Both the position numbers and the translations under genes were made by a program. 50,844 nt of DNA from Lachnospiraceae bacterium (GTDB taxonomy: Bacteria; Bacillota; Clostridia; Lachnospirales; Lachnospiraceae): the NCBI GenBank assembly GCA_017479285.1, contig JAFVCL010000100.1, forward strand, positions 1-50,844. The letters run 5' to 3'. Each line of letters starts with the position of its first letter. Within the stretch, counting starts at the first letter, position 1. Positions 7,709 to 41,379 of this stretch are shown one piece after another. The notes beneath the pieces were generated by a model. The model was not told the DNA's origin, did no database searches, and saw only the letters and a list, made by a program, of their open reading frames with translations.

Positions 7709-7834
7709 TACATCAATCGGATAACCTGACCGGGAGCGGGGGTGAACCGAACGTGTTTAAGACCGGACGTGCTAAAGCCGGACACGGTTTGGGATCAAAC
7801 TTATATTTTGTGTAGCAGAAAGGCGGAGAAGAAA

Positions 7835-10114: not shown

Positions 10115-10136
10115 GCGACCTGCGGGGTGGCCCCCT

Positions 10137-16535: not shown

Positions 16536-16586
16536 TTTTTAGTTCCGATCGGCAATCTGCGGCGTTAAAATCCGGGAGCTTGAAAG

Positions 16587-16615
16587 TTGTTAGGGATGTG
16601 TTTGTGTGCTATAAT
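16587..16615 (+). promoter_or_regulatory. Promoter TTGTTA-17-TATAAT for the GH25 gene and rfb genes
   Basis: TTGTTA (16587-16592) and TATAAT (16610-16615) with 17-base spacing, 35 bases before the ATG at 16651. No terminator lies between this gene and rfbB, so it may drive both. Confidence 0.6.
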
Positions 16616-16650
16616 AAATTGTTTAAAATATAAGATTTGGAAAGAGATTT

Positions 16651-19406: not shown

Positions 19407-20501
19407 ATGCGTACTTATTTGGTAACAGGAGGAGCCGGTTTTATCGGTTCAAATTACATTCATTACATGTTTAAGAAGTATGGTGATGAGATCCGCATTA
19501 TAAATGTCGATGCTCTTACCTATGCGGGAAATCTTGAGAACTTAAAAGATATCGAGAACCGCGCAAACTACTCCTTCGTAAAGGCAAACATCTGCGACAA
19601 GGAAGCTATCAGCAAAATCTTCGCAGAAAACGACATCGACAGGGTTGTGCATTTTGCGGCAGAGAGCCATGTGGACAGAAGCATTAAGAATCCCGAGGTC
19701 TTTGTCCAGACAAATGTACTCGGAACCGCTGTAATGCTTAATTGCGCGAAGGCGGCATGGGAGAACCCGGACGGAAGCTTCAAGGAGGGAAAGAAGTTCC
19801 TTCATGTATCAACCGATGAGGTTTACGGTTCCCTTCCCGACGACGAGAATGCATTCTTCTATGAGACTACGCCCTACGATCCCCACAGCCCTTACTCCGC
19901 AAGTAAGGCAAGCTCCGATATGTTGGTAAAGGCTTACATGGATACCTACAGGTTCCCTGCCAACATAACCAACTGTTCCAATAACTACGGACCTTACCAG
20001 TTCCCCGAGAAGCTCATTCCCCTTATCATAAACAACGCGCTTCAGGGCAAGAAGCTTCCCGTATACGGCGACGGTAAGAATGTCCGCGACTGGCTCTATG
20101 TGGAGGATCATGCGAAGGCTATCGACATGGTGCAGGAAAAGGGCAGGCTCTTTGAGACTTACAATATCGGAGGACACAACGAGAAACAGAATATCGAGAT
20201 AATAAACATAATCCTTGAAACCTTACAGGAGATGCTACCCGAAGGCGATCCGAGAAAGGCTTATATAAATAAAGACCTCATCACATATGTTGAGGACAGA
20301 AAGGGGCACGACCGCCGTTACGCAATCGCACCCGACAAGATAAAGTCCGAGATCGGCTGGGAGCCTGAGACATATTTCAAGGAAGGCATTAAGAAGACCA
20401 TCGCCTGGTTCTTTGAGCATGAGGACTGGATGAAGAATGTAACCAGCGGCGATTATCAGAAGTACTATGAGGATATGTATGATACTAAGGGAGCAAAATA
20501 A
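19407..20501 (+). CDS. rfbB: dTDP-glucose 4,6-dehydratase
   Basis: It converts dTDP-glucose to dTDP-4-keto-6-deoxyglucose. The NAD-binding motif is GGAGFIG (residues 8-14). The catalytic STDEVYG block includes Thr136, Asp137 and Glu138, with Tyr163-x3-Lys167 (YSASK). The NCSNNYGPYQFPEKLIP and GDGKNVRDWLYVEDH blocks are typical of RfbB/RmlB. AAAGGAG lies 7 bases before the ATG. It has 364 residues, slightly above the usual 330-355. Only 44 bases separate it from the GH25 gene, with no terminator. Order rfbB, rfbA, (GH25), rfbC is unusual in carrying a muramidase gene inside it. Confidence 0.95.
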   Translation: MRTYLVTGGAGFIGSNYIHYMFKKYGDEIRIINVDALTYAGNLENLKDIENRANYSFVKANICDKEAISKIFAENDIDRVVHFAAESHVDRSIKNPEVFVQTNVLGTAVMLNCAKAAWENPDGSFKEGKKFLHVSTDEVYGSLPDDENAFFYETTPYDPHSPYSASKASSDMLVKAYMDTYRFPANITNCSNNYGPYQFPEKLIPLIINNALQGKKLPVYGDGKNVRDWLYVEDHAKAIDMVQEKGRLFETYNIGGHNEKQNIEIINIILETLQEMLPEGDPRKAYINKDLITYVEDRKGHDRRYAIAPDKIKSEIGWEPETYFKEGIKKTIAWFFEHEDWMKNVTSGDYQKYYEDMYDTKGAK

Positions 20502-20540
20502 AAAAATGAATCTGCTTGCAGAATGAATTTTTTTATTTTT
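20502..20540 (+). terminator. Possible imperfect terminator between rfbB and rfbA
   Basis: TCTGC-TT-GCAGA is flanked by a run of A residues on the left and ATGAATTTTTTTATTTTT on the right. The outer stem has mismatches, so it may be a partial terminator or an attenuator. The gap 20502-20665 also holds two GGATTGC copies that could each pair with GCAATCC at 20631-20637. Confidence 0.35.
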
Positions 20541-20665
20541 AGCGACCTGAACAAACATAAGCAAGTAGCGATTTTTGAAAAAAATCTGCGGATTGCGCAT
20601 GTTTGAAGGATTGCGAGAGTTGAAAACGGAGCAATCCGTGTATCATTTACTTACAAGGAGGAAAC

Positions 20666-21544
20666 ATGAAAGGTATCATATTAGCGGGCGGAAGCGGCAC
20701 ACGCCTCTACCCCTTAACAAAAGCAATATCAAAGCAGATCATGCCGGTTTACGATAAGCCCATGATCTATTATCCCTTATCAACCCTTATGCTCGCGGGT
20801 ATAAGAGAGGTTCTTATTATCTCAACGCCCCGCGACCTTCCGGTTTTTGAGGATCTGTTCGGAGACGGAAGCCAGCTTGGAATGAAGTTTTCATACGCTG
20901 TGCAGGAACAGCCCAGAGGACTTGCGGATGCCTTTATTGTAGGAAAGGATTTCATCGGAAGTGACGCTGTGGCACTTGTTCTCGGAGACAATATCTTCTA
21001 CGGCCAGAGCTTCTCAAAGGTATTAAGGGAGGCCGCTCACCGCGTGGAGAATGAGGGCGGAGCAACGATCTTCGGATATTATGTAAGAGACCCCAGAGAG
21101 TACGGTGTTGTAGAGTTTGATGAAAACGGAAAGGCTCTTTCAATCGAGGAAAAGCCTGCAAACCCGAAATCAAATTATGCCGTGCCCGGGCTTTATTTCT
21201 ACGATAACAAGGTTGTGGATATTGCGGCAAATGTTAAGCCCAGCGCCCGGGGTGAGATTGAGATAACTACTGTAAACAGTACATATCTTGAGGCGGGAAC
21301 GCTAAGCGTAGAGACTCTCGGAAGGGGCTTTGCGTGGCTCGATACCGGAAACCACGACATGCTCCTTGCGGCTGCGGATTTTGTTTCATCCATCCAGAAG
21401 CGCCAGGGACTTTATGTATCCTGTATCGAAGAGATCGCGTACAAGAGGGGCTTTATCGACAAGGATCAGCTTCTTAAGCTTGCCGAGCCTCTTATGAAGA
21501 CAGAGTACGGCAAATATCTTGTAGAGGTAGCTAATGGACTCTAA
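20666..21544 (+). CDS. rfbA: Glucose-1-phosphate thymidylyltransferase
   Basis: It couples dTTP and glucose-1-phosphate to dTDP-glucose, the substrate of RfbB. The nucleotide-binding signature [11 protein letters not shown] (residues 8-18) and [17 protein letters not shown] are diagnostic. Further matches are [25 protein letters not shown] and the [10 protein letters not shown] block. The 292 residues are a normal length. AAGGAGG stands 6 bases before the ATG. Its last 11 bases overlap the start of the shorter GH25 gene. Confidence 0.95.
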
Positions 21545-22832: not shown

Positions 22833-22920
22833 TTTTGAAACCGTTATGACCGAAATCGGGCGTGTGTCCGCGGCGAGGTTTTCATGACAGGTTTCGGTTA
22901 CAGATTTACAAGGAGTGATC

Positions 22921-23469
22921 ATGGGTAAAATTACAGTTACAGACACTAGAATAGAGGGTCTCAAGGTCATCGTGCCGGAGGTACACGGAGACAAGCGCGG
23001 ATATTTCGTTGAGACCTACAATGCAAGGGATATGAAGGAAGCAGGCATCGACCGCGTCTTTGTACAGGACAATCAGTCAGCTTCATCCAGAGGCGTGCTC
23101 AGGGGACTTCACTTCCAGATAGAGCATCCTCAGGCAAAGTTGGTGCGCGTCATTAAGGGCGAAGTATTTGATGTGGCAGTGGACCTTCGCAAGGGTTCTA
23201 AAACCTACGGACAGTGGCACGGGGAGCTCCTCTCGGAGACCAACTTCAAGCAGTTCTACATTCCGGAAGGTTTTGCACACGGATTTCTGGTAATAAGTGA
23301 TTACGCGGAGTTCTGCTATAAGTGTACGGACTTTTATCATCCCGGAGACGAGGGCGGACTTATATACAATGATCCTGAGATCGGAATCGATTGGCCCATC
23401 GCACCGGATATGGTTTTAAACCTGTCCGAAAGAGATACTAAATGGGGCGGAATAAAGGATCTTGGCTGA
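22921..23469 (+). CDS. rfbC: dTDP-4-dehydrorhamnose 3,5-epimerase
   Basis: ATG 22921 is preferred to the in-frame GTG at 22915, which forms part of the AAGGAG ribosome site. The 182-residue cupin enzyme shows DKRGYFVETYN, the RGLHFQ block with catalytic His64, a KGEVFDVAVDLRKGSKTYGQ strand and IPEGFAHGFLV. It turns dTDP-4-keto-6-deoxyglucose into the L-lyxo epimer on the way to dTDP-L-rhamnose. The final reductase gene rfbD is not in the window. Its TGA overlaps the next ATG by one base (TGATG). Confidence 0.93.
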   Translation: MGKITVTDTRIEGLKVIVPEVHGDKRGYFVETYNARDMKEAGIDRVFVQDNQSASSRGVLRGLHFQIEHPQAKLVRVIKGEVFDVAVDLRKGSKTYGQWHGELLSETNFKQFYIPEGFAHGFLVISDYAEFCYKCTDFYHPGDEGGLIYNDPEIGIDWPIAPDMVLNLSERDTKWGGIKDLG

Positions 23470-24290
23470 TGTCTAACAATAAAAACCAAAAGCTCAATAT
23501 CTTCGCAGAGGGCTTCCGCAACAGGAAGCTCATCTGGAAGCTCGCAAAAAATGATTTTAAAAAGCGCTACGCCGGTTCATACCTTGGAGTTGTCTGGGGT
23601 ATGGTACAACCACTTACTACCGTGGTGCTTTATTTTCTTGTATTCGGACTTATCTTTCCGAGCCAGCGTTCCAGCGGTTCGGACATTCCTTTTGTACTCT
23701 TTTTGACAGCAGGTTTAGTGCCATGGTTTTTCTTTAACGAAGGTCTTACCACGGGAACAAACGGCCTCATAGAGTACAATTATCTGGTTAAAAAGGTTGT
23801 GTTCAATATCAGCATACTCCCAATAATCAGGGCGGTTGCTGCGGTATTTACGCATCTTTTCTTTATCGTGGTCGTGCTGGTCATGGCGTCGATCTACGGT
23901 TATTACCCATCTTTTTATACTATTCAGGTGTTGTATTACAGCCTGTGCATTTTCGTTCTGATATTGGCCATAAGCTATGCCACCAGTGCGGTCTGCGTGT
24001 TCTTCAGAGACCTGACACAGCTGGTGACCATACTGCTGCAGATACTCATGTGGGGCACTCCCATCATGTGGGATCTGTCATCCCTCGGAAACGAGACCGT
24101 GAAAAAAGTGCTGATGATCAACCCTCTTGTCTATATAATCAACGGTTACAGAGAGTCTATCTACGGGAAGACCTGGTTCTTTGAACACGGCTGGTACACC
24201 CTTTATTTCTGGGCGGTTGCGGCGCTTTTGATGTTGGCCGGAACAGCCATATTTAAGAAACTCAGAGTGCATTTCTCGGATGTGCTGTAA
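23469..24290 (+). CDS. wzm: Polysaccharide ABC transporter permease (Wzm/TagG-type)
   Basis: ATG 23469 overlaps the rfbC stop and has AAAGGAT about 10 bases upstream; the ATG at 23442 would extend back inside rfbC. The 273-residue ABC-2 membrane protein has an N-terminal amphipathic segment (RKLIWKLAKNDFKKRYAGS) and the conserved LGVVWGMVQPLTTVVLYFLV first helix. About five more spans follow, with the VFFRDLTQLVTILLQI and INPLVYIINGYRE elements typical of polysaccharide and teichoic-acid exporters. It pairs with the ATPase encoded 88 bases downstream to flip an undecaprenyl-linked polymer across the membrane. Confidence 0.9.
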   Translation: MSNNKNQKLNIFAEGFRNRKLIWKLAKNDFKKRYAGSYLGVVWGMVQPLTTVVLYFLVFGLIFPSQRSSGSDIPFVLFLTAGLVPWFFFNEGLTTGTNGLIEYNYLVKKVVFNISILPIIRAVAAVFTHLFFIVVVLVMASIYGYYPSFYTIQVLYYSLCIFVLILAISYATSAVCVFFRDLTQLVTILLQILMWGTPIMWDLSSLGNETVKKVLMINPLVYIINGYRESIYGKTWFFEHGWYTLYFWAVAALLMLAGTAIFKKLRVHFSDVL

Positions 24291-24378: not shown

Positions 24379-25683
24379 ATGGAAAATAATGATTTTGCGA
24401 TCCGTTTAACGGATGTGAAAAAAGTATATAAGCTCTATAACAAGCCGAAGGACAGGCTCTTTGATGCCTTCGGACTTCTCCGGGGAAAGAGAAAGCCCGC
24501 GCTTAATTATGCGCTTAAGGGTGTGGACCTGGAGATCAAAAAGGGAGAGACTGTCGGTATCATAGGAACCAATGGTTCGGGTAAATCAACTATCCTGAAG
24601 ATCATCACCGGTGTCCTCTTTGAGACCTCGGGAGAGGTGGAGATAAACGGCAGGATATCCGCGCTTCTGGAGCTGGGAGCGGGCTTCAACATGGAATACA
24701 CCGGCGTTGAAAATGTGTATTTAAACGCCACCATGATGGGCTTTTCCGATGAGGAGATTGAAAAAAAACTTCCGGAGATCTTAGAGTTTGCGGACATCGG
24801 AGATTATGTATATCAGCCGGTAAAGACCTACTCCAGCGGTATGTTTGTCCGCCTTGCATTTGCGGTTGCCATAAATATCGATCCCGAGATATTGATCGTG
24901 GATGAGGCATTATCCGTTGGTGATGTTTTCTTCCAGGCAAAGTGCTATGCAAAGTTTGAGGAATTCAAGCGAAAAGGAAAGACCATTGTCTTTGTTAGCC
25001 ATGATCTCTCCAGCATCGCGAAATACTGTGACAGGGTATACCTGTTGAATAAAGGAAATATGCTGGGAGAGGGCTCTCCCAAGGAAATGATAGACCTGTA
25101 TAAGAGAGTGCTGGTGGGTCTCTATGATGAGGACGGTTCAGATGCAGGTGAAGGCTCCGGAAGCGGCTCTAATGGATCCGGTAATGATTCCGGCAACGGA
25201 GCCGGTGATTCCACTATGCATTCCATGCTGAATCCCGACACCCTGGAGTACGGAACCCGCCAGGCGCTTATAAAGGATGCCTATATCACGGACGAGGGCG
25301 GCCGCAGGACATCCACTATCATCAAGGGCTCAAGATTCACGGTTCACATGACGGTTTTATTTGAAGATCATGTGCCGGGACCTATCTTTGCGGTGACCTT
25401 TAAGGATGTTCGCGGTACCGAGATCACGGGAACCAATTCCATGTATGAAAAGGCCTACACCGGCTGCGGTGAAAAGGGCGACACCATGGAGGTATCCTTT
25501 ACTCAGATCATGTCACTCCAGGGCGGAAACTATCTGCTCTCCCTTGGATGCACGGGATTTTCCGGAGCGGATTTCGAGGTCTATCACAGGCTCTATGATT
25601 GTCTTGATATAACCGTTGTCTCCGATAAAGACACCGTTGGTTACTACGATATGTTCTCCGAAGTGGAAGTAAAGAAAGTATAA
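24379..25683 (+). CDS. wzt: Polysaccharide ABC transporter ATPase with a Wzt_C-like carbohydrate-binding domain
   Basis: The N-terminal ATPase has a Walker A GTNGSGKST (residues 63-71), the short signature KTYSSGMFVRLAFA, a Walker B ILIVDEALSVGD (about 172-183) and the switch histidine in FVSHD. This is the subfamily of Wzt, TagH and RgpD. After a Gly/Ser/Asn linker (about 253-280) comes a beta-sandwich (about 285-434), matching the layout of Wzt_C: YGTRQALIKDAYITDEGG, then VTFKDVRGTEITGTNS and a closing DMFSEVEV. In O9a-type systems Wzt_C binds the capped end of the glycan and licenses export. The next gene, 9 bases on, resembles the capping enzyme, which supports the same logic here. Confidence 0.9.
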   Translation: MENNDFAIRLTDVKKVYKLYNKPKDRLFDAFGLLRGKRKPALNYALKGVDLEIKKGETVGIIGTNGSGKSTILKIITGVLFETSGEVEINGRISALLELGAGFNMEYTGVENVYLNATMMGFSDEEIEKKLPEILEFADIGDYVYQPVKTYSSGMFVRLAFAVAINIDPEILIVDEALSVGDVFFQAKCYAKFEEFKRKGKTIVFVSHDLSSIAKYCDRVYLLNKGNMLGEGSPKEMIDLYKRVLVGLYDEDGSDAGEGSGSGSNGSGNDSGNGAGDSTMHSMLNPDTLEYGTRQALIKDAYITDEGGRRTSTIIKGSRFTVHMTVLFEDHVPGPIFAVTFKDVRGTEITGTNSMYEKAYTGCGEKGDTMEVSFTQIMSLQGGNYLLSLGCTGFSGADFEVYHRLYDCLDITVVSDKDTVGYYDMFSEVEVKKV

Positions 25684-25692
25684 ACAGGATTT

Positions 25693-27918
25693 ATGGAAAA
25701 CGAAACGATCGGGAAAGTAAAATTAGATTATAAGCATTATGCCGGCAAGGACCTTTACTGTGACGGAGATGTGGAAGCACAGATCCTGGAGGCGGTGAAG
25801 CAGGCAGGAAACAGGGCAAATTCCGCCACGGCAGGGGGCACCACAGCAAAGGACACCACTCCGGGGGGCGCCGCTGCAGATAAGCAAACGGACCTCACTG
25901 CCGCAGAATATGCAGACATTATAGAAAAGCACCCCAATTGGCCTTTTTTGTACCATCTGTCCCCCATCAGGGAAAACATTGTAAGCTGGCTTCCCATGGA
26001 TAAGTCCGACAAGGTGCTGGAGGTGGGCAGCGGATGCGGCGCCATCACAGGTGCTCTCTCGAAAATGGCAGGAATCGTGGACTGTGTCGATCTGTCAAGG
26101 CAGCGCAGCCTCATCAATGCGCACCGCCATGAAAACTGCGATAATGTGACCATTCATGTTGGCAATTTCCAGGATATCGAACCCGATCTTCCGAATGATT
26201 ATTCCTACATTTGCCTCATCGGGGTGTTTGAGTACGGGCAGGCCTACATCGGCGGGGACAAGCCCTACGAGACATTTCTGAGCATTCTAAAAAAGCATTT
26301 GGCCACTCACGGAAGGATCGTGATCGCCATTGAAAATAAGTTTGGACTTAAGTATTTCGCGGGATGCAAGGAAGATCATGTGGGTAAATTCTTCGAAGGT
26401 ATCGAAGACTATCCCGGAAAAAGCCCTGCCAGAACCTTTACCGAAAACGGACTTTTAAAGATTGCGGAAAAGGTGGGCTTTGCAAAGGGTGAGTGCCATA
26501 TGTACTATCCTTATCCCGACTATAAGTTCATGAACACTCTTTTCTCGAAAAAGCGTATGCCCGGAGAGGGCGAGTTAAAGGATAATCTTAGGAATTTCGA
26601 CCGTGACAGGTACCTTCTTTTTAACGAGAAATTAGCCTTTGACAATATCATTCGTGAAGGGGAATTCTCTCTCTTTTCGAATTCATATATGCTGGTGCTG
26701 GGCAGGGATATCGACACCATTTACACCAGATATTCAAACGACAGGGACCCTGAAAAGTGCATTTCCACGGAAATCAAGGAAGTCCGCATGGGAATAACCG
26801 GTGGTTCTGCTGTCAGGACAGTGGTAAAGAAAGCTCTGACTGAAGATGCGAAAAAGCATATCGTGAAAATCGCTGATAATTATAAACTTTTATCCCGCCG
26901 CTATGAGGGCAGCAAGCTCATGATATGTCCCTGCACTTTATCCGAGAATGGAAAAGAGATTTCTTTTCCTTATCTGGAGGGAAAGCGATTGGAAGAGATT
27001 CTGGATGAAAAGCTTGCAAAGAAAGATCACGAGGGCTTCAAGGCGCTGGTAAAGGAATTCTATGAGAGGATCTCCTATGGAGAGACGAACGGAGCGGAAG
27101 AGACGGGAGCCGTTAAACCCGGTGTTCAACCTGTGACTGACATGGACCTCATATTCTCCAACGTGATCGTGGATGGGGATAAATGGACGGTCATCGACTA
27201 TGAGTGGGTGACGGAGGAAAACAAGCCTTCAAAAGAAGTGGCCTACAGAGCAACTTACTGCTATGAGCTGGAGGATGAAGCAAGGCGCGTATCCGAGGAA
27301 CTGGGGATCCTTCAGATGCTTGGCCTGTCCGCAAATGATGCGGAGAGGATCAGGAGAGAAGAGGCTGAGTTCCAAAAGAAGGTTTCCGGTGGTCATAAGT
27401 CCCTTGGAGAGATCCGTGAAGACATTGGAAATGAAGTGGTGGATCTGACGGGTAGCGGTGCAGGAAGCACCGGCGGTGCCATAGCCCAAGCCGGAAAGCT
27501 TCAGGTCTATTATGATTTCGGAAACGGCTTTTCCGAGGAGAATTCATATTTTGCGGACAGGGATGGTGCAGGCTTTACCATCGAACTTAAAGATAAACTT
27601 CGCTCCATTAGATTGGACCCCTGTGATTATTCCTGCGTGGTGAATATAAAGGAGCTGTCTGTTGAAGGCACACCCCTTGAAATCTCCGGCAGCAAGGTGA
27701 TCTCTAACGGAAGTCGTATCGGAAGCAGCGTATTTGTCTTTGGTACTGCCGATCCCAACATAACCATTGGTTTGAAGGGCGTTAAGTGCGGAGAAGGCAA
27801 AAAGATGAGAGCGGTATTTGATATAAATGCCTTGCCTAAGAGTATCGCCGCTGCTTTGCCTGAGGGTGAAGAAAAGGGCCTTACTACAAAAATAAAGAGA
27901 AAACTCGGTGGGTTCTAA
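25693..27918 (+). CDS. WbdD-like SAM methyltransferase with kinase-like domain (putative chain terminator)
   Basis: Residues 100-290 are a class I methyltransferase with motif I LEVGSGCG (109-116), an acidic CVDLS strand and ICLIGVFEYG as the post-II region. Residues 365-560 look like a protein-kinase fold: YLEGKRLEEIL at a hinge-like position, then DLIFSNVIVDGDKWTVIDYEW, matching the D-x4-N catalytic loop and a DxE metal site of small-molecule kinases. Residues 590-741 are a beta-rich tail of unknown role. This methyltransferase-then-kinase order is that of WbdD, which caps O9a chains with methyl-phosphate. A Gly/Thr/Ala-rich insert (42-65) separates the N-terminus from the enzyme. Capping function is inferred; a plain SAM methyltransferase is the fallback. 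Confidence 0.7.
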   Translation: MENETIGKVKLDYKHYAGKDLYCDGDVEAQILEAVKQAGNRANSATAGGTTAKDTTPGGAAADKQTDLTAAEYADIIEKHPNWPFLYHLSPIRENIVSWLPMDKSDKVLEVGSGCGAITGALSKMAGIVDCVDLSRQRSLINAHRHENCDNVTIHVGNFQDIEPDLPNDYSYICLIGVFEYGQAYIGGDKPYETFLSILKKHLATHGRIVIAIENKFGLKYFAGCKEDHVGKFFEGIEDYPGKSPARTFTENGLLKIAEKVGFAKGECHMYYPYPDYKFMNTLFSKKRMPGEGELKDNLRNFDRDRYLLFNEKLAFDNIIREGEFSLFSNSYMLVLGRDIDTIYTRYSNDRDPEKCISTEIKEVRMGITGGSAVRTVVKKALTEDAKKHIVKIADNYKLLSRRYEGSKLMICPCTLSENGKEISFPYLEGKRLEEILDEKLAKKDHEGFKALVKEFYERISYGETNGAEETGAVKPGVQPVTDMDLIFSNVIVDGDKWTVIDYEWVTEENKPSKEVAYRATYCYELEDEARRVSEELGILQMLGLSANDAERIRREEAEFQKKVSGGHKSLGEIREDIGNEVVDLTGSGAGSTGGAIAQAGKLQVYYDFGNGFSEENSYFADRDGAGFTIELKDKLRSIRLDPCDYSCVVNIKELSVEGTPLEISGSKVISNGSRIGSSVFVFGTADPNITIGLKGVKCGEGKKMRAVFDINALPKSIAAALPEGEEKGLTTKIKRKLGGF

Positions 27919-27949: not shown

Positions 27950-30070
27950 TTGAATTTGGGTATCAAAAAGATCATTAAAGACAGCCGTGAAAAAGCGGCA
28001 AGAATATATATAAAGCTTTTTCGAAGGGACCTCTCATCTAAGGGTGAGAAGGTTTCTTCGAATTCTTTTTTTGCGGATTGTGTGGAAAAGTATGACAGGG
28101 AGCTGGAGGACTGGATAAAGCCCTACGGCTACTGGCTCAGGAATGACCCCTGGGAGGTGAGAGCAGGAAGTTTACGGGATGAAGAGGGCAAGATAACCGT
28201 TGGTGATCATGAATATGTGCTTCTCATAACGGAAAACACACGGCCCGCCCGCGGTTGGAAGACCGCAGTGAGGGAGAGTCTGGAGGAAGTGATCGATTCA
28301 ACTTTTCCTGTCATTATTTACGGTGATGAGGATGTGCTCTCAAGCGGTGGAAATCTTTCTTCCGTTGAAGCTTCTTCACAGGAAGTATGCGAGCGGTCAG
28401 ACCCCTTCTTCAAGCCCGATTTCTCTCCGGAACTTTTGGAACAGTTTAATTACTTCGGTGAGATGGTGCTCATCAGAAAAGATGTTTTAAGCTCCGTTTG
28501 TCCCGATTTTTCGGAATGTGATCCGGTGTCACCCGAGAAGCTTTATGAGATCATAAGGAATGCCATCAAAGGGCTTGAGTGCAAGGATGACCATGAAACC
28601 GAGCAGGCTTCAAGATTTCCACAGGCTTTAAAATCTCCACAGGCTTCAGAACAGAAGCGCATGCCTGCTTTCGATCCGAACCTTATCACAAGACATTACT
28701 ATAAATCAGTCCTTCACATTCCCCATATTTTAAGCCATCGTATCAATGGGTCTGCAGCGGAGGATTGCGAGAGGGCTATCGAGAGGCTGAACTCTACATC
28801 AAAAGCCACATCAGACCCTGCCGTCTCCGTCATCATCCCCACAAAGGATCATCCGGAGGTGCTTCGTACCTGCATTTCCTCTTTGACTCAAAAGACGGAT
28901 TATGACAGGTCAAAGATCGAGATCATCGTGGTGGACAATGGCAGCAGTCCTGCTCACAAGGCCGAGTACGAGGCTCTTTCGGCTGAATTTGATTTCAAAT
29001 ATATCTACGATCCCCAGCCCTTTAACTATTCCCATATGAACAATCTGGGTGCGGAAAAGACTGCGGGCGAACTGCTGCTTCTTTTAAATGACGACACGGA
29101 GATCATTGAATCCACCTGGCTTCGCCGCATGGTGCACTATGCTATGGATCCCGAGGTGGGCGCTGTGGGAGCAAAGCTTCTCTATGCAAACACGGAGAAG
29201 ATCCAGCACGCCGGCGTCACCAATATGGCAGTGGGTCCCTCCCACAAAATACTTGCCTTAGAGGATTCGATAAATCACTATTTCGGGCGAAACAAACTTG
29301 ATTACGATATGCTGGCCGTGACAGGAGCCTGCCTCATGGTTTCAAAGGATAAATTCCATGAAGTCGGCGGACTGAATGAGGACCTGAAGGTAGCATATAA
29401 TGATATCGATTTTTGCATGAAGCTTTTTGAACACGGATACAGAAGCGTTCAGTGTAACGGCGCGGTGCTCTATCACTATGAGTCCCTGACCCGCGGAATG
29501 GATGAAGGAAACGAGGAAAAGTACCACAGGCTTCTGGCAGAAAAGGAAAAGCTCTATGCCGCTCACACCTGGGCGAAGGGCTTCGATCCTTTCTACAATC
29601 CGAATCTGATAGATAATTCCTCGGATTATCTGCCTGCCACAAAGGACTGCACTCAGAATACCGACAGCTTTTCAAAGCTTCTGGCAAAGGGTGAGCCTGT
29701 TTTAAAGGACACCTTTATGGTGAGAGCAAGGCTGGATCGCGTACAGCTTCAGCTCCGAAATACGGAGGATGCGGAGGATTTCATCTGGCTGGACGGATGG
29801 GGTTATGTGAGAGGCTGTGATAACCGTCGGTTCGAAAAGAGTCTGCTTCTTGTGAGCGACGTGACCCGCAGGTACGAACTCTTCTCCACATACAGAAAAG
29901 ATATCCTGGGTGCTTTCCCCGGCGAGGATCACATCGAACTTTCCGGTTTCTATTTCAGGCTTCCTGTCAAGGAACTGGAAGGGAAAACCTGGCAGGCAGT
30001 TCTGGTTGAAACGGACATCATCACGGGAAAGCAATTATATAAAAATCTGAATCGGGATATTACGGTGTAA
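27950..30070 (+). CDS. GT2 glycosyltransferase with a degenerate N-terminal GT2-like domain
   Basis: The start is TTG at 27950 or 27956; AGGCGG at 27941-27946 fits the latter better. The intact GT2 domain spans about residues 283-555: VSVIIPTKDHPEVLRTCISS, VVDNGSS, the metal-binding LLNDDTE, and VTGACLMVSKDKFHEVGG. The N-terminal 270 residues keep only traces of the second half of such a domain: VIIYGDEDVL, then KPDFSPELLEQFNYFGEM. These align by eye with the TDEDK and KPDFSIDLFRSHNYI parts of the 36368 protein. The last 150 residues are not assigned. The gene sits 31 bases after the WbdD-like gene and 6 bases before a GT-C-like gene. Confidence 0.85.
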   Translation: MNLGIKKIIKDSREKAARIYIKLFRRDLSSKGEKVSSNSFFADCVEKYDRELEDWIKPYGYWLRNDPWEVRAGSLRDEEGKITVGDHEYVLLITENTRPARGWKTAVRESLEEVIDSTFPVIIYGDEDVLSSGGNLSSVEASSQEVCERSDPFFKPDFSPELLEQFNYFGEMVLIRKDVLSSVCPDFSECDPVSPEKLYEIIRNAIKGLECKDDHETEQASRFPQALKSPQASEQKRMPAFDPNLITRHYYKSVLHIPHILSHRINGSAAEDCERAIERLNSTSKATSDPAVSVIIPTKDHPEVLRTCISSLTQKTDYDRSKIEIIVVDNGSSPAHKAEYEALSAEFDFKYIYDPQPFNYSHMNNLGAEKTAGELLLLLNDDTEIIESTWLRRMVHYAMDPEVGAVGAKLLYANTEKIQHAGVTNMAVGPSHKILALEDSINHYFGRNKLDYDMLAVTGACLMVSKDKFHEVGGLNEDLKVAYNDIDFCMKLFEHGYRSVQCNGAVLYHYESLTRGMDEGNEEKYHRLLAEKEKLYAAHTWAKGFDPFYNPNLIDNSSDYLPATKDCTQNTDSFSKLLAKGEPVLKDTFMVRARLDRVQLQLRNTEDAEDFIWLDGWGYVRGCDNRRFEKSLLLVSDVTRRYELFSTYRKDILGAFPGEDHIELSGFYFRLPVKELEGKTWQAVLVETDIITGKQLYKNLNRDITV

Positions 30071-34436: not shown

Positions 34437-34510
34437 ATTTTATGTGCCGTGTTTGAAGCGGATGCTTTTTTCACAACAGCATGATAAGGAAAATAACAGG
34501 AGGAAATACC

Positions 34511-36232
34511 ATGGGTTATAAGGAAGAATACAATTATTGGATAAGTGATGATTATTTTGATCAGACAACCAAGGATGAGCTACTTGCCATAAAGGACAAT
34601 GAGACCGAGATAGAGGAGAGATTCTACAAAGAGCTTGAATTCGGAACCGGCGGACTCCGCGGAGTAATCGGTGCCGGAACGAACCGTATGAACATCTATA
34701 CTGTCAGAAAGGCAACCCAGGGTCTTGCAAATTATATTTTAAAGCACGGCGACCCCAAGAAGGGTGTTGCGATCTCCTGCGACAACCGCCGTATGAGCCC
34801 CGAGTTTTCGAGGGAGACGGCTCTCTGCCTTGCCGCAAACGGAATAAAGGCTTACATCTTTGATTCACTTCGTCCTACCCCCGAGCTTTCCTTCGCGCTC
34901 CGTGAGCTGGGATGTACCGCGGGCGTTATGGTCACCGCAAGCCACAATCCCCCGGAGTACAACGGATATAAGGTATACTGGGAGGACGGCGCGCAGATAA
35001 CCGCTCCCATCGATAAAGATATTATTACAGAAGTTAAGGCTATTACCGATTATCATACCGTTAAGACCATGGACAGGGATGCCGCAGTGGCAGCAGGTCT
35101 CTACGAGGTTATCGGAAAAGAGATCGATGACAAATATATGGCTGAGCTCAAGAAGCAGATCATCCATCCCGAGGTTATCGATGCTGTTTCCAAGGACCTC
35201 AAGATCGTTTACACACCTCTTTGCGGAACCGGAAATCTTCCCGTACAGCGTATCCTTAAGGAACTCGGATTTACCAATGTATATGTTGTTGAGGAGCAAA
35301 AGGGTCCCGATCCGGAGTTTACGACTCTCGAGTATCCCAATCCCGAGGATCCCAAGGCATTTACCTATGCGCTCCGTCTCGCAAAGGAGAAGGATGCGGA
35401 TATCGTTCTTGCCACAGACCCCGATGCTGACCGTCTCGGCGTTTATGCGAAGGATACAAAGACCGGCGAATATGTTCCCTTTACCGGAAATATGTCCGGT
35501 ATGCTTATTGCCGAGTATATTTTAAGAGAGCGCACAGCTACGGGAACAATGCCCGCAAACCCCGCTCTTGTAACCACCATTGTAACCACCAATATGACAA
35601 AGCCCATAACCGCTGCCTACAATGTCAAGCTTATCGAGGTTCTGACCGGATTTAAGTTTATCGGCGAGCAGATCAAGTGGTTTGAGCAGAAGGGTACTTA
35701 CAATTATGTGTTCGGACTTGAGGAGTCTTACGGATGTCTCGTCGGAACTCATGCAAGAGACAAGGATGCCATCGTTGCGGTTATGGCGCTTTGCGAGGTT
35801 GCCTCATTCTGCAAGAAGCAGGGCAAGACTCTCTGGGATATGATGATCGATGTCTATGAGAAGTACGGCTACTACAAGGAGACCCAGTATACCATAACCA
35901 TGAAGGGTATCGACGGCTCCCGCCAGATTGCCGAGACCATGGAAAAGCTTCGCAAGAATCCTCCCAAGGCATTCGGAGATTTAAAGGTTTTGAAGTTCAG
36001 GGATTACGAGAATGATGTTATTCTTGACATGGAGACCGGAGAGAAGACATCCACCGGACTTCCGAAGTCAAATGTCCTTTACTTTGAGCTTCCCGATGAC
36101 AACTGGTGCTGCGCAAGACCTTCGGGAACCGAGCCCAAGATCAAGTTCTATATGGGCGTTAAGGGTACCAGCTTAGAGGACGCTAAGACCAGAGTTGAGA
36201 AACTCACCGAGGATGTAAAGGCAGTGCTCTAA
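34511..36232 (+). CDS. pgcA: Phosphoglucomutase/phosphomannomutase (alpha-D-phosphohexomutase)
   Basis: ATG 34511 follows CAGGAGG by 8 bases; the ATG at 34481 lacks a site. The 573-residue protein has the substrate-entry GTGGLRGVIGAGTNRMN, the catalytic serine in VMVTASHNPPEYNGYKVYW, the metal-binding ATDPDADRLG and the FGLEESYG sugar loop. The phosphate-binding RPSGTEPKIKFY closes it. Its length and motifs fit the bacterial PgcA/PGM2-like group. It interconverts hexose-6- and hexose-1-phosphates and could feed both RfbA (glucose-1-P) and ManC (mannose-1-P). It interrupts the glycosyltransferase run but has its own terminator. Confidence 0.93.
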   Translation: MGYKEEYNYWISDDYFDQTTKDELLAIKDNETEIEERFYKELEFGTGGLRGVIGAGTNRMNIYTVRKATQGLANYILKHGDPKKGVAISCDNRRMSPEFSRETALCLAANGIKAYIFDSLRPTPELSFALRELGCTAGVMVTASHNPPEYNGYKVYWEDGAQITAPIDKDIITEVKAITDYHTVKTMDRDAAVAAGLYEVIGKEIDDKYMAELKKQIIHPEVIDAVSKDLKIVYTPLCGTGNLPVQRILKELGFTNVYVVEEQKGPDPEFTTLEYPNPEDPKAFTYALRLAKEKDADIVLATDPDADRLGVYAKDTKTGEYVPFTGNMSGMLIAEYILRERTATGTMPANPALVTTIVTTNMTKPITAAYNVKLIEVLTGFKFIGEQIKWFEQKGTYNYVFGLEESYGCLVGTHARDKDAIVAVMALCEVASFCKKQGKTLWDMMIDVYEKYGYYKETQYTITMKGIDGSRQIAETMEKLRKNPPKAFGDLKVLKFRDYENDVILDMETGEKTSTGLPKSNVLYFELPDDNWCCARPSGTEPKIKFYMGVKGTSLEDAKTRVEKLTEDVKAVL

Positions 36233-36367: not shown

Positions 36368-38257
36368 ATGGAAAAAACAGGCTTCAAGAAAGAAAACAAA
36401 ATACAGAAGGCTCTGAGGATCCTGCGTGAGAAAGGACCCGGCGAGGTGGCAAAGAAGGTCAAAAATAAGATCGAGGCACCCCGCAAATATCACCGATGGT
36501 TCCTTGCACAGAGAGTGACCGCCGAGCAGCTGGAGGCTCAGAGACAGACCCATTTTACGTACGAACCAAAGGTTAGTATTTTGGTGCCCACCTATCGCAC
36601 GCCCCTTCCTCTTCTTAAAGAGATGATCGAGTCCGTAAGGGCGCAGTCCTACGAAAACTTGGAGCTCTGTATTGCGGACGGAAGCGTGGGAGCAAAGATC
36701 GACGCTGATGGAAACGTGGTAGGAGCAGCTTCTCCCAAATCCCCCCTCGAGGATGTACTCAGGGAGTATCACGAGCAGGACCCCAGGATCATCTACAAAA
36801 CCCTGGACCGAAACGGCGGCATTTCCTACAACACAAATTGTGCTCTGGAAATGGCCACCGGCGAAGTCATTGCACTTCTTGACCATGATGATGTTTACGA
36901 GCCCGATGCTCTATTTGAGATTGTGAAGGCATATCAGAATCCCAAGACTCGGATCGTGTACACTGACGAAGACAAGGCTACTAACAATCTGGGCAAGTTT
37001 ATGGACCCGAATTTCAAGCCTGATTTTTCCATCGATCTGTTCAGGAGCCATAATTATATAACTCATATTTACTCCGTAAAGACTGATATTCTGCGCGCTG
37101 TTGGGGGCTTTAACAGCGAGTACGACGGGGCCCAGGATTATGAGATGATGTTCAGGTGCATAGAGTATGCTCTTGGAGCTGCTTCATCCGGCACATCAAA
37201 CATCGATTTCGGCTTGGATTCAGTCCGGGAGATCATCGCCCATGTGCCAAAGGTGCTCTATCACTGGCGCCTGGCAAAGGGCTCCACTGCGGAGAACCCC
37301 GAGAGCAAAATGTATGCCTACGAGGCAGGCAGGAAGGCGGTTCAGGAGCATCTAAAGAGAATGGGGATCCACGCAAAGGTTGAAATGACCGATATGTGGG
37401 GAATGTATCACACTACCTATGAGGTGCAGGGCGAGCCCCTTGTCTCCGTCATCATCCCCAACAAGGATCACACAGATGACCTTGAAAACTGCCTCCGCTC
37501 AATCAATGATAAGAGCGATTACAAAAATATCGAATTCATCATCGCGGAGAATAATTCCGAGGATAAGGAGACCTTTGCAGCCTATGAAAGGCTTGAAAAG
37601 GAATTCGAAAATCTGAAGGTAGTCAAGTGGGAAAAGGAATTCAACTATTCTGCCATCAATAATTTTGCCGCAAAACATGCTTCCGGAGAGTATTTCCTAT
37701 TCTTAAACAACGACACTGAGCTTATTTCGCCCTCGGGCATTTCAGAAATGCTGGGAATAGAGCAGCGAAGTGATGTGGGCGCTGTGGGTACAAAGCTGAT
37801 TTACCCCGATGAGACTGTGCAGCATGCGGGAATATTACTGGGATTTCGCGGATATGCCCAGCATCCCTTTGTGGGAATCGGCAGAAACGAATTTGGATTT
37901 ATGGTACGTGCCAGAATCAATTGTAATTACAATGCTGTGACAGGAGCCTGCCTTATGGTTTCAGGGGAGGATTTCAAACGCGTCGGCGGCTTTACGGAGG
38001 AGCTTCCCGTTGCGGGGAATGATGTTGATTTCTGTCTCAAGGTAAGAGGGCTTGAAAAGCTTGTCGTTTATAACGCATTCTCGGAGTGGTATCATTTTGA
38101 ATCAAAGTCGAGAGGATACGAGGATACTCCGGAGAAAAGGGACAGGTTCCGCGCAGAGGTCGGGAAGTTCAGAGAGCGCTGGGGAGAGCGGGTTGACGCA
38201 GGGGATGAATACTATAATCCTAATTTTGATATGGAAAATGCCCCCTATGAACTGTAG
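36368..38257 (+). CDS. Tandem GT2 glycosyltransferase (two intact domains)
   Basis: Two GT2 domains lie in 629 residues. Domain A (about 65-330) has VSILVPTYRTPLPLLKEMI, IALLDHDDVYEPDALFE as the metal motif and IVYTDEDKAT. Domain B (about 358-610) has VSVIIPNKDHTDDLENCL, LFLNNDTELISPSGI and VTGACLMVSGEDFKRVGGF. Bifunctional enzymes of this kind often add two alternating sugars of a repeat. The ATG stands 17 bases after a terminator and no clear ribosome site precedes it. A start further inside is unlikely because the N-terminal helix region is shared with the next gene. Confidence 0.88.
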   Translation: MEKTGFKKENKIQKALRILREKGPGEVAKKVKNKIEAPRKYHRWFLAQRVTAEQLEAQRQTHFTYEPKVSILVPTYRTPLPLLKEMIESVRAQSYENLELCIADGSVGAKIDADGNVVGAASPKSPLEDVLREYHEQDPRIIYKTLDRNGGISYNTNCALEMATGEVIALLDHDDVYEPDALFEIVKAYQNPKTRIVYTDEDKATNNLGKFMDPNFKPDFSIDLFRSHNYITHIYSVKTDILRAVGGFNSEYDGAQDYEMMFRCIEYALGAASSGTSNIDFGLDSVREIIAHVPKVLYHWRLAKGSTAENPESKMYAYEAGRKAVQEHLKRMGIHAKVEMTDMWGMYHTTYEVQGEPLVSVIIPNKDHTDDLENCLRSINDKSDYKNIEFIIAENNSEDKETFAAYERLEKEFENLKVVKWEKEFNYSAINNFAAKHASGEYFLFLNNDTELISPSGISEMLGIEQRSDVGAVGTKLIYPDETVQHAGILLGFRGYAQHPFVGIGRNEFGFMVRARINCNYNAVTGACLMVSGEDFKRVGGFTEELPVAGNDVDFCLKVRGLEKLVVYNAFSEWYHFESKSRGYEDTPEKRDRFRAEVGKFRERWGERVDAGDEYYNPNFDMENAPYEL

Positions 38258-38377: not shown

Positions 38378-39880
38378 ATGGGAAAGCTTTCTTTGGTCAA
38401 TTTAAAAAAAGCATATAATTTCCTAAGGGAGAATGGGCTTTCCGCCACGGCTTACGAGGTCAGGACAAGGCTTGCGCAAAGAAACGACGATTATAAGCTG
38501 CGCCGTCCGGATAAATCCGAGCTTGAAAAGCAGCGTGCCGCATCGGGTGGATTTTCATATCGTCCGATTATCAGCGCGGTAATTCCGCTCTATAACTCCG
38601 ACGAAAATATGCTCGGGCAGCTGTTTGAATGTCTGAAGAACCAGAGTTACGACAACTGGGAGGTTATCTTTGCGGACGGTTCAGACTCGGTGAAGCTTGG
38701 GCATTTCCTTAAGGAACTCTGCGAGAGGGAGGATATAGAGCAGCCGGTAAGGTATTTCCATATCGGTGAAAACAGAGGCATTTCGGAAAATACCAATTAC
38801 GGACTGGAGCGTGCATACGGGGATTACATCGCGCTTATCGATCATGACGATCTTATAGAGCCTGACGCTTTTTTTGAGGTGGTCAGTGCGTTAAATAAAT
38901 ATGCCGACGGAGAAAGACCGGGAATAATATATACGGACGAAGACAAGACGGATGAGAGTGGAGAGAATTATTTCGATCCTGTTTTCAAGCCGGATTTTGA
39001 TATGTTTTATCTTCTTTGTAACAATTATATCTGCCACATGAGCGTTTTCGAGGCAGGATTGATAAAGTCGCTTAAGCTTCGCAAAAAATTTGACGGTGCG
39101 CAGGATCACGACCTGTTGCTCCGCGCGGCCGTAAAGACCGGGAACAAGCACCATATTCCAAAGATATTGTATCATTGGCGTGTTTTCGGAAATTCAACCT
39201 CCGGAAATACGAGGGGGAAGTTTTATGCTTATGAAGCCGGACGGCGCGCGGTAAGCGAGGCGGCTGTAAAGCACGGAATAAATGCGGAGGTATACCATAC
39301 AAGACATGTCGGCGTGTTCGGCTTTGATTTTGCCGAAGATCCCTTGATAAAAGCCGGAGACAGGGAGGATGCATCCGGTACAAAAGCGCTTTTTGAAAGA
39401 GTTGGCGCCATCGGCGGTGTTGTAATCCGCAGAAACAAGAACGGAAAGATAATCGGAGGGCCGCTTCTTTACTCGGGATATGCGGAAGATGTAACGGAGG
39501 GAAGCGCAGATGAAAAAGGAGCCCGTAAAAGGCACGGTCTGTATTCGCTGACGGGGCTTCCCTCACCTGCCGGGGGAAGATATAACCGCAGGTTCGTTAT
39601 GCAGGAGGCGCTCTATCTTGATATAAGGTGTATTAAGATAGCACCGGATCTGATCCCGCTTTTTGAGGAAACCATTGGTTATCCGTATAACGAGAAAAGG
39701 GCGGAACTCAGGACGGAGCTTGCTGCGGGAAGATCTCCGTCAGCTCCCGATACGATATTTGACTGGAGAGTGCTCCCGCAGGATACTGACTATGAGAAGA
39801 TCGGATTAAGACTGTGCAGTGCGATAGCAGAAAAAGGATATAAGCTTGTATTCGTACCTGACCTTGCTGAAATCCCGTAA
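38378..39880 (+). CDS. GT2 glycosyltransferase with a degenerate second domain
   Basis: Domain A is intact (about residues 60-310): ISAVIPLYNSDENMLGQLFE, IALIDHDDLIEPDAFFE and IIYTDEDKTDESGENYF. The C-terminal half keeps only the last part of a GT2 domain: RVGAIGGVVIRRNKNGKI aligns with VGAVGTKLIYPDETVQHAG of the neighbour, and the following block with its acceptor region. The nucleotide-binding first half and the NDD metal motif are missing. The N-terminal helix (LSLVNLKKAYNFLRENGLSA) resembles that of the 36368 protein, suggesting origin by duplication and loss. The 120-base gap before it holds only a weak GGAAAGAG ribosome site. Confidence 0.83.
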   Translation: MGKLSLVNLKKAYNFLRENGLSATAYEVRTRLAQRNDDYKLRRPDKSELEKQRAASGGFSYRPIISAVIPLYNSDENMLGQLFECLKNQSYDNWEVIFADGSDSVKLGHFLKELCEREDIEQPVRYFHIGENRGISENTNYGLERAYGDYIALIDHDDLIEPDAFFEVVSALNKYADGERPGIIYTDEDKTDESGENYFDPVFKPDFDMFYLLCNNYICHMSVFEAGLIKSLKLRKKFDGAQDHDLLLRAAVKTGNKHHIPKILYHWRVFGNSTSGNTRGKFYAYEAGRRAVSEAAVKHGINAEVYHTRHVGVFGFDFAEDPLIKAGDREDASGTKALFERVGAIGGVVIRRNKNGKIIGGPLLYSGYAEDVTEGSADEKGARKRHGLYSLTGLPSPAGGRYNRRFVMQEALYLDIRCIKIAPDLIPLFEETIGYPYNEKRAELRTELAAGRSPSAPDTIFDWRVLPQDTDYEKIGLRLCSAIAEKGYKLVFVPDLAEIP

Positions 39881-39921: not shown

Positions 39922-41379
39922 ATGCCGCTTTATAATCAAAAACAACAAGCGTGGTATTTTAGGGTTAGGGATATGATAAAAGAAAACCAGTCAGTGCTTA
40001 ATCGGCTGCTGATATTTATTGATGCGGTAATAATCGGCGGCTCTTTTGTTTTGGCTTATCTAATTAAATTCTATATATTCAGACCCGCACCGGGGGTAGG
40101 CGTGCTGCCACTCATCAGCTATGTACATCTTATGCCGTTTGTGGTTGGCGGATATATACTGGTCTACCTGCTGTCCAATGTCTATACCCCGAAGCGGACA
40201 TCCACTCTGTTTATGGAGATAATGGTTCTGCTGAGAACGGATGTTATTTGTATCGCGCTCCTTGTTATCGTGATTTATGTTATCATGCATGCGGTGTATT
40301 ATGCGCGTTCTGTTATCGGTATTTTCTTCATACTCAGTTTCTGCGTGGAAGCATTTTTCAGGATAATAATAAGAACAATAATAAGGCGGTTCAGGCTTAA
40401 CGGATACAATGCCAAGCATGTGCTGCTTGTTGGTTATTCCCGCGCCGCGGAGAGTTATATTTCAAAGGTCGTAAGCAATCCCGAGTGGGGATACATTGTA
40501 TTCGGTATTCTGGATAACTGGGTTCCGGTCGGCACAAAATATTATGAAAACTCCGTTATCGGCAGGCTTGATGAACTTGAAAACCTTATAAAGAATAATG
40601 ATTTTGATGAGGTTGTGATAACGCTTTCCCTCAGGGATTACGATTATTTCGAGCAGGTGGTGAATATCTGTGAGAAAAACGGTGTACATACGAAGTTTAT
40701 TCCCGATTACAACAGTGTTGTCCCGACGAATCCTTATACAGAGGATCTCGACGGACTCTCGGTCATAAACATCCGCAGGGTTCCCCTCAGCAATGCCGGG
40801 AATCAGCTTATAAAGAGGGCAGTGGATATCGCGGGATCGCTGTTTGCGATAATCATTACATCGCCCGTGATGCTGGTTACCGCCTTCCTTGTCAAGGTAT
40901 CAAGCAAGGGCCCCATACTGTTTAAGCAGGAGAGGGTCGGCTATCAGGGAAAGACCTTTAAAATGCTGAAGTTCAGGTCGATGGTAGTGCAGTCCGAGGC
41001 GGAGGAAAAGAGGGGCTGGACGGTAAAAGGCGATCCGAGAGTTACACCTGTCGGAAGGATAATGAGAAAGACGAGTATTGACGAGCTCCCGCAGTTTTTC
41101 AATATTCTTAAGGGGGATATGAGTCTGGTGGGACCAAGACCCGAAAGACCGCAGTATGTCGAAAAATTCCGCGAGGAGATTCCCCGGTATATGGTAAAGC
41201 ACCAGGTACGGCCGGGACTTACGGGATGGGCTCAGGTCAATGGACTCCGGGGCGATACCTCGATAAAAAAGCGGATTGATCATGATATTTATTATATAGA
41301 GAATTGGACATTTTTCTTTGATCTTAAAATATTGTTTATGACACTGTTCGTAGGATTTATGAACAAAAATGCTTATTAA
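39922..41379 (+). CDS. Polyprenyl-phosphate hexose-1-phosphate transferase (WcaJ/CpsE-type)
   Basis: Four to five N-terminal membrane helices (about residues 27-130) are followed by a CoA-binding_3-like domain (about 150-265). The C-terminal bac_transf domain starts near 290 with LIKRAVDIAGSLFAIIITSP. Catalytic-region motifs are FKQERVGYQGKTFKMLKFRS, TSIDELPQFFNILKGDMSLV, GPRPERP and RPGLTGWAQVNG. It places the first sugar-phosphate on undecaprenyl phosphate, which starts polymer synthesis. ATG 39922 has no clear ribosome site; ATG 39973 is an alternative after a TTAGGG. It is followed 12 bases later by the LCP gene. Confidence 0.92.
   Translation: MPLYNQKQQAWYFRVRDMIKENQSVLNRLLIFIDAVIIGGSFVLAYLIKFYIFRPAPGVGVLPLISYVHLMPFVVGGYILVYLLSNVYTPKRTSTLFMEIMVLLRTDVICIALLVIVIYVIMHAVYYARSVIGIFFILSFCVEAFFRIIIRTIIRRFRLNGYNAKHVLLVGYSRAAESYISKVVSNPEWGYIVFGILDNWVPVGTKYYENSVIGRLDELENLIKNNDFDEVVITLSLRDYDYFEQVVNICEKNGVHTKFIPDYNSVVPTNPYTEDLDGLSVINIRRVPLSNAGNQLIKRAVDIAGSLFAIIITSPVMLVTAFLVKVSSKGPILFKQERVGYQGKTFKMLKFRSMVVQSEAEEKRGWTVKGDPRVTPVGRIMRKTSIDELPQFFNILKGDMSLVGPRPERPQYVEKFREEIPRYMVKHQVRPGLTGWAQVNGLRGDTSIKKRIDHDIYYIENWTFFFDLKILFMTLFVGFMNKNAY

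What the first reader, a model, noticed from the sequence alone, without database searches (positions are those of the whole stretch)
25693..27918. WbdD-like capping enzyme next to a Wzt with a carbohydrate-binding tail in a Gram-positive cluster
The protein has a SAM methyltransferase followed by a kinase-like domain, the order of WbdD, the chain terminator of E. coli O9a. It lies 9 bases after an ABC ATPase whose C-terminal domain resembles Wzt_C, the reader of the capped end. A cap-and-recognise export mechanism is known in Gram-negative O-antigen systems; in a wall-linked polymer with an LCP ligase it would be little described.
Basis: partly seen in the sequence, partly recalled or inferred. 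Interest (0 to 1): 0.75.

Follow-up and report, generated by a model that had tools for sequence, protein, structure and literature searches.

The report
Sugar-chain capping enzyme with matching exporter
Gut and rumen bacteria related to the Lachnospiraceae carry, in a wall-sugar gene cluster, an enzyme that probably caps the growing sugar chain, next to an exporter with a domain that could read the cap, a mechanism known so far mainly from Gram-negative bacteria.

Summary
ORF 25693-27918 encodes a SAM methyltransferase, a kinase-like domain with an intact catalytic set, and a third conserved domain. It starts 9 bases after a Wzt with a clear Wzt_C domain (PF14524, 2.2e-38), in a dTDP-rhamnose/WbaP/LCP cluster. 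The protein does not match WbdD beyond methyltransferase-fold level. It is homologous to another methyltransferase-kinase terminator type, that of Klebsiella pneumoniae O7 (ORF6-O7), which puts methyl phosphate on a terminal rhamnose: the family profile aligns through all three domains with a Pseudomonas asturiensis protein (1.9e-65) that has the six published ORF6-O7 SAM-pocket residues at the published numbers. Gene order Wzm-Wzt-terminator is shared. The pairing is conserved among relatives: Wzt directly upstream in 74 of 77 loci; 70 of 75 terminator-bearing genomes have Wzt_C. In 69 of 70 aligned relatives there is no room for the C-terminal coiled-coil ruler of described terminators. Gram-positive cap-and-export has been proposed for S-layer glycans, so this is a new variant in a wall-polymer setting.

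The parts
25693..27918 (+). Putative chain terminator, 741 aa: methyltransferase - kinase - third conserved domain (called MK here)
25693..26712 (+). N-terminal motif (Y22 in DLYCDG) and SAM methyltransferase domain, residues ~1-340; Y22, Y87, G112, G114, D133, Y181 align with the residues of P. asturiensis that carry the ORF6-O7 SAM-pocket numbers
26713..27477 (+). Kinase-like domain, residues 341-595; K379, D485, N490, D502, E504, W505 invariant in 70 of 70 A2 rows
27493..27828 (+). Third conserved domain, residues 601-712 (IYxDxGxGFSEE...RIDP...DPNI), presumed beta-rich from its sequence; in the place of the Ig-like CBM reported for ORF6-O7; also found before a GT2 domain in L185
24379..25683 (+). 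Wzt ATPase with C-terminal carbohydrate-binding domain
25237..25668 (+). Wzt_C domain (residues 287-430), proposed reader of the cap
   Evidence: PF14524 2.2e-38; 3.7e-39 in the genome search
23442..24290 (+). Wzm permease (ABC2_membrane)
22915..23469 (+). RmlC, dTDP-4-dehydrorhamnose 3,5-epimerase
20666..21544 (+). RmlA-like nucleotidyltransferase
19407..20501 (+). RmlB-like dehydratase (a strong RmlD family match lies on another contig)
27950..30070 (+). GT2 glycosyltransferase, candidate polymerase part
36368..38257 (+). GT2 enzyme with more than one GT2 stretch, 37% identical over 566 aa to the GT part fused to the terminator of P. asturiensis
38378..39880 (+). GT2 glycosyltransferase
34481..36232 (+). 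Phosphoglucomutase/phosphomannomutase
39922..41379 (+). WbaP-type initiating sugar-phosphate transferase
   Evidence: PF02397 5.9e-73
41392..42495 (+). LytR-CpsA-Psr (LCP) wall ligase
   Evidence: PF03816 7e-31
42509..43474 (+). GT2 glycosyltransferase

Best explanation
The gene encodes a chain terminator of the K. pneumoniae O7 (ORF6-O7) kind, working on the lipid-linked rhamnose-containing wall polymer made by this cluster. The kinase domain phosphorylates the sugar at the non-reducing end (most likely rhamnose). The methyltransferase domain methylates that phosphate, so the chain stops growing. [quoted passage not shown] The LCP enzyme then joins the capped chain to peptidoglycan. Shown here: domain order, homology to the O7-type family, conserved catalytic residues, physical and phyletic pairing with Wzt_C, cluster content. 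Inferred: enzymatic activity, methyl phosphate as the cap, rhamnose as acceptor, cap recognition, wall linkage.
Against: No structure model could be made. Alone, the kinase profile matches P. asturiensis only at 6.3e-6 and Citrobacter at 0.94, and the third domain P. asturiensis at 0.023 and Citrobacter not at all. P. asturiensis has H at the K379 position, Citrobacter E at D502. The Wzt CBM is no closer in identity to the O7-type CBMs (21%, 23%) than to O9 (24%). The coiled-coil ruler that PMC11231755 calls characteristic of terminators is not seen here. In 17 places of the window's own genus a terminator relative has no strong Wzt_C on its contig (assemblies fragmented; one genome examined). 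Five genomes have a terminator match without Wzt_C, 18 the reverse.
Confidence: 0.65

Rival explanations
1. A true Gram-positive WbdD: same family as the E. coli O9a enzyme, capping a mannose-type end.
For: Same domain order. hhalign places the WbdD methyltransferase on A2 (prob 43.6, E 2.4e-4). The full-length Wzt profile matches O9 Wzt strongly (2.6e-73, 37% identity).
Against: WbdD scores like shuffles in the methyltransferase test and is not found with the kinase profile. No room for its C-terminal coiled coil; a third domain that the WbdD passages seen do not describe. P. asturiensis matches far better (1.9e-65).
Confidence: 0.05
2. A cap with different chemistry: phosphate only, a 2,3-cyclic phosphate as on the C. 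difficile Ox247 S-layer glycan, or methylation of a sugar hydroxyl, still read by Wzt.
For: C. difficile Ox247 ends in 2,3-cyclophospho-rhamnose and its authors speculate on termination (PMC6254364 passages). E. coli O8 WbdD is methyltransferase only. G. stearothermophilus caps with 2-O-methyl-rhamnose. The Wzt CBM here is only 21-24% identical to the Citrobacter, P. asturiensis and O9 CBMs.
Against: Both catalytic domains look intact and are conserved together; the nearest type with described biochemistry makes methyl phosphate.
Confidence: 0.17
3. The enzyme decorates repeat units or a linker along the chain, and Wzt_C reads something else.
For: No acceptor is known. In part of the genus the gene is not seen beside Wzt.
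Against: Genome-level pairing with Wzt_C (70 of 75) and homology to a described terminator type.
Confidence: 0.1

Closest known systems
K. pneumoniae O7 terminator ORF6-O7 (methyltransferase-kinase-CBM-coiled coil-GT2-GT2; PMC11231755, passages seen)
   Same: Domain order methyltransferase - kinase without Pfam family - third domain; SAM-pocket residue pattern through P. asturiensis; rhamnose genes, Wzm-Wzt; related GT2 modules in the cluster
   Different: Separate from the GTs; no C-terminal coiled-coil ruler; in a cluster with an LCP wall ligase instead of LPS
E. coli O9a WbdD (PMC3482155, passages seen)
   Same: Methyltransferase-kinase order next to a Wzt with reader domain; same proposed logic
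   Different: No significant sequence relation beyond a methyltransferase fold; WbdD has a coiled coil and a eukaryotic-type (Src-like) kinase
G. stearothermophilus S-layer glycan system WsaE + Wzm/Wzt (PMC2943079, passages seen)
   Same: Gram-positive, rhamnan, capped end, Wzt predicted to read the cap
   Different: Cap is 2-O-methyl made by a domain of a GT; no kinase described in the passages; polymer goes to an S-layer protein
C. difficile Ox247 S-layer glycan (PMC6254364, passages seen)
   Same: Gram-positive, rhamnose end carrying phosphate, ABC export, suggested termination
   Different: Cyclic phosphate without methyl; S-layer linkage; capping enzyme not assigned in the passages seen
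A. aeolicus Wzm-Wzt with 3-O-methyl cap (PMC9445017, passages seen)
   Same: Best PDB matches of the Wzt are 8dku (2.1e-78) and 7k2t; 7k2t is named in the passages as their WzmWzt, the organism of 8dku is recalled
   Different: CBM similarity is faint by phmmer (7.1 bits); methyl cap; Gram-negative setting

Membership tests
ORF6-O7-type methyltransferase-kinase terminator | Methyltransferase domain with the ORF6-O7 SAM-pocket pattern | tested here: met
   Profile match to P. asturiensis, which has 6 of 6 residues at the published numbers; aligned residues here Y22, Y87, G112, G114, D133, Y181, with D or E at the E112 position. Indirect: the O7 sequence was not held
ORF6-O7-type methyltransferase-kinase terminator | Following kinase domain with catalytic Asp | tested here: met
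   D485/N490 in 70 of 70 A2 rows and in both Gram-negative relatives; kinase-profile hits in the PDB; match to P. asturiensis alone 6.3e-6. D485 is equated with D441 only through P. asturiensis, where it is residue 443
ORF6-O7-type methyltransferase-kinase terminator | Ig-like CBM after the kinase | tested here: inconclusive
   A third domain is there and aligns with P. asturiensis (0.023 alone, inside one 1.9e-65 alignment; 4.3e-8 with a profile that includes P. asturiensis itself). Not found in Citrobacter. No PDB match and no consistent Pfam match; fold not predicted
ORF6-O7-type methyltransferase-kinase terminator | Coiled-coil molecular ruler | tested here: not met
   Only 11-42 residues after the third domain in 69 of 70 A2 rows, 70 in one. 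The heptad score used is crude (P0001 1.20, P. asturiensis 1.43, WbdD 1.57, but also 1.42 for a window GT and 1.58 for one A2 row at residue ~500), so a short internal coil is not excluded; L026 and L027 (1.75, 1.53) look coiled near their ends. So I claim homology and a like mechanism, as a variant
ORF6-O7-type methyltransferase-kinase terminator | Transfers phosphate and methyl to the chain end | not testable with these tools
   Needs biochemistry
WbdD (E. coli O9a) | Sequence relation of methyltransferase and kinase to WbdD | tested here: not met
   a methyltransferase-only hhalign match
WbdD (E. coli O9a) | C-terminal coiled coil | tested here: not met
   with the crude score
Wzt with C-terminal reader domain | ABC ATPase plus Wzt_C | tested here: met
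Wzt with C-terminal reader domain | Binding of the capped chain end | not testable with these tools
   Needs a binding assay

The most novel reading that the evidence does not exclude
Cap-and-read export is the standard way Lachnospiraceae finish their LCP-attached rhamnose wall polymer: a methyl phosphate cap made without a coiled-coil ruler, so chain length is set by another principle (for example glycan binding by the third domain, or competition between polymerase and terminator), and the wall surface displays methyl-phosphorylated chain ends.
Probability: 0.4. Interest if true: 0.75.

Novelty: new variant of a known kind. Interest (0 to 1): 0.6.

Why it matters
How Gram-positive bacteria set the length of ABC-exported rhamnose wall polymers is, to my knowledge, poorly settled. 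If a terminator and reader pair is a core part of this cluster in a family common in gut and rumen, chain-length control and export quality control become directly testable there, and the outer ends of these polymers would carry a defined chemical group facing the host and phages. It also suggests that the O7-type terminator family reaches beyond the alpha- and gammaproteobacteria and cyanobacteria named in the passages of PMC11231755, and that the coiled-coil ruler need not be a universal part of it.

Tried and rejected
In the Pfam and NCBIfam scans no model covers the third domain or names this protein, and kinase models hit only 3 of 39 kinase regions. The O7 gene record was not in the collections. 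The R. gnavus glucorhamnan paper was not held, so I could not test whether that cluster is the same. The tally of 104 of 341 class genomes is inflated by generic methyltransferase and PrkC-type hits near 1e-5; counting table rows at 1e-12 or better leaves 23 of 341, one of them (G307) a third-domain-only match. An apparent Wzt-terminator fusion in one related locus was dropped: the stretch holds masked bases. A distance-correlation test of the Wzt CBM against the terminator domains in 65 loci plus the window (partial correlations 0.39 methyltransferase, 0.19 kinase, 0.16 third domain) is too confounded by shared ancestry to carry weight. A PADLOC mad2 match to the methyltransferase (5e-16) was considered as a defence reading and set aside because the genes around it are polysaccharide synthesis; other MADS genes were not searched for.

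Full report
What is there. The window holds a polysaccharide cluster. RmlB, RmlA and RmlC (19407-23469) are followed by Wzm (23442-24290), Wzt (24379-25683), the 741-aa protein of the finding (25693-27918), several GT2 glycosyltransferases, a phosphoglucomutase-type enzyme, WbaP (39922-41379) and an LCP ligase (41392-42495). A strong RmlD family match lies on another contig, so the dTDP-rhamnose pathway looks complete. The Wzt C-terminal domain is a clear Wzt_C (2.2e-38), the only one found in this 87.5% complete genome. The full-length Wzt profile aligns with the O9 Wzt of E. coli HS over 415 columns, reader domain included (2.6e-73).

The 741-aa protein. Its methyltransferase is seen by Pfam only weakly, its kinase not at all. 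An alignment of 17 homologues (A1) and one of 70 (A2) show invariant blocks in both. A profile of the kinase region from 39 sequences finds solved protein kinases, GCN2 first at 5.5e-5; all 60 rows shown of 239 are kinases. With A1, the same stretch finds 19 ORFs of 630-677 aa in other Clostridia genomes; the 4 I checked are kinase+PASTA proteins. K379, D485, N490, D502, E504 and W505 are invariant in 70 of 70 rows of A2, so it looks like an active kinase.

Which family. WbdD of E. coli HS was the yardstick. BLASTP finds nothing of note. With HMMs built from A2, WbdD scores 0.62 in the methyltransferase against 0.51 for the best of 600 shuffled sequences, and is not listed with the kinase or whole-length profile at E<=1. 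hhalign gives a methyltransferase-only match and nothing in the kinase. By contrast, tblastn against 72,556 plasmid records found two relatives, both in Gram-negative bacteria and both directly after Wzm and Wzt: a 649-aa protein of Citrobacter braakii, with rmlBACD upstream beyond a transposase gene, and a 1457-aa protein of Pseudomonas asturiensis with two GT2 stretches at its end. The A2 profile matches the latter in one alignment over positions 21-659 at 1.9e-65. It matches Citrobacter at 1.9e-57, but the strong part there is the methyltransferase (22-344); the kinase profile alone gives 6.3e-6 and 0.94, and the third-domain profile 0.023 and no match. The tblastn piece in Citrobacter does run from 82 to 520, into the kinase.

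The described enzyme of this type. A paper on K. pneumoniae O7 (PMC11231755; passages seen) describes a terminator with methyltransferase, unannotated kinase, Ig-like CBM, coiled coil and two rhamnosyltransferase modules. It adds methyl phosphate to a terminal rhamnose, and D441A abolishes kinase activity. The six SAM-pocket residues that it names are found at the same numbers in the P. asturiensis protein (6 of 6); the aligned catalytic Asp is there residue 443, two off; Citrobacter has none of the six at the same numbers, though it has them by alignment. I therefore place the window protein with this type by homology, as a variant. The O7 sequence itself was not available.

In 193 related genomes, 70 have both a terminator match (E<=1e-12) and Wzt_C, 5 the first only, 18 the second only, 100 neither; outside the genus the numbers are 41, 4, 18 and 99. 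The genomes are related, so the Fisher values overstate independence. Of 75 terminator places examined, 46 lie within 1.5 kb of a strong Wzt_C, 6 within 1.6-3.8 kb, and 23 have none on their contig, 17 of these in the window's own genus; the assemblies are fragmented. In the one such genome examined, the main cluster keeps Wzt and LCP while the terminator relative sits on another contig beside a GT. In the sample of the phylum the family is found in 13 of 398 genomes at 1e-12, own and same-family genomes included.

The rest of the cluster in relatives. In the 80 loci, cut at 10 kb on each side, WbaP is seen in 42 and LCP in 5.

Module play. One relative of the same family (L176) has a free methyltransferase followed by a 989-aa kinase-third domain-GT2-GT2 protein, which is the O7 arrangement in two pieces. 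The GT at 36368-38257 is 37% identical over 566 aa to the GT part of the P. asturiensis protein. The third domain also occurs before a GT2 domain in L185, which fits a glycan-binding helper. The Wzt CBM is 21-24% identical to the Citrobacter, P. asturiensis and O9 CBMs alike (profile scores 50.9, 50.6 and 40.3 bits), so it does not by itself tell which cap is read.

What differs. The described terminators use a coiled coil as molecular ruler. In 69 of 70 A2 rows only 11-42 residues follow the third domain, in one row 70, so length control, if any, must work otherwise. The coiled-coil score used is crude: it gives 1.20 here against 1.57 for WbdD and 1.43 for P. asturiensis, but also 1.42 for a window GT. 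Two more distant relatives, L026 and L027, score 1.75 and 1.53 near their ends.

Precedents. The WbdD paper says that comparable assembly systems serve O-linked glycans of Gram-positive bacteria. The S-layer review predicts that Wzt of G. stearothermophilus reads a 2-O-methyl-rhamnose cap. The C. difficile Ox247 S-layer glycan ends in cyclophospho-rhamnose, with speculated terminator role. A review passage mentions a terminal sugar that ends lactococcal polyrhamnan synthesis before export (PMC7831098). In the ten answered searches of the held open-access library (one search returned no paper, several lists were capped) I saw no listing that describes a methyltransferase-kinase terminator in a Gram-positive wall-polymer cluster. 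Most subscription papers are not held, and of the papers used I saw listings, abstracts' openings and passages only.

Verdict. On checking, I set its confidence at 0.65 instead of 0.68, and the different-cap rival at 0.17 instead of 0.15, because the strong Citrobacter profile match turned out to be the methyltransferase only and the catalytic Asp of P. asturiensis is two residues off the published number. Cap chemistry and wall linkage remain inferred.

Noticed in passing
window 31969-34392: TIR-domain protein (PF13676 7.3e-10) with a faint PQQ/beta-propeller-like match further on, inside the wall-polymer cluster; found in only 1 of 80 related loci (L033). Weak PADLOC matches (4.7e-5).
   Followed up: partly
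window 30077-31912: 611-aa protein, membrane-like by its hydrophobic stretches, without any Pfam match at E 0.1; no relative at 1e-8 in any of the 80 related loci.
   Followed up: no
window 5492-7466: AbiLi/AriA-like ATPase (PADLOC 5.3e-66) overlapping a 242-aa ORF without Pfam match; looks like a two-gene phage-defence unit.
   Followed up: partly
window 25693-27918, residues 86-217: The methyltransferase matches the PADLOC mad2 model (56.6 bits, 5e-16) better than any Pfam methyltransferase model (best 22.5 bits).
   Followed up: no
L174 and L175 (one genome of the window's genus): The terminator relative sits beside a GT on another contig, while the wall cluster keeps Wzt_C and LCP.
   Followed up: partly
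L182: Two terminator-like genes in one cluster; the one at 8346-10133 has lost the SAM-binding glycines but keeps the kinase residues.
   Followed up: no
window 7742-10114, 15036-19362: BspA-type LRR and GH25 proteins with choline-binding-type repeats lie upstream of and beside the cluster.
   Followed up: no
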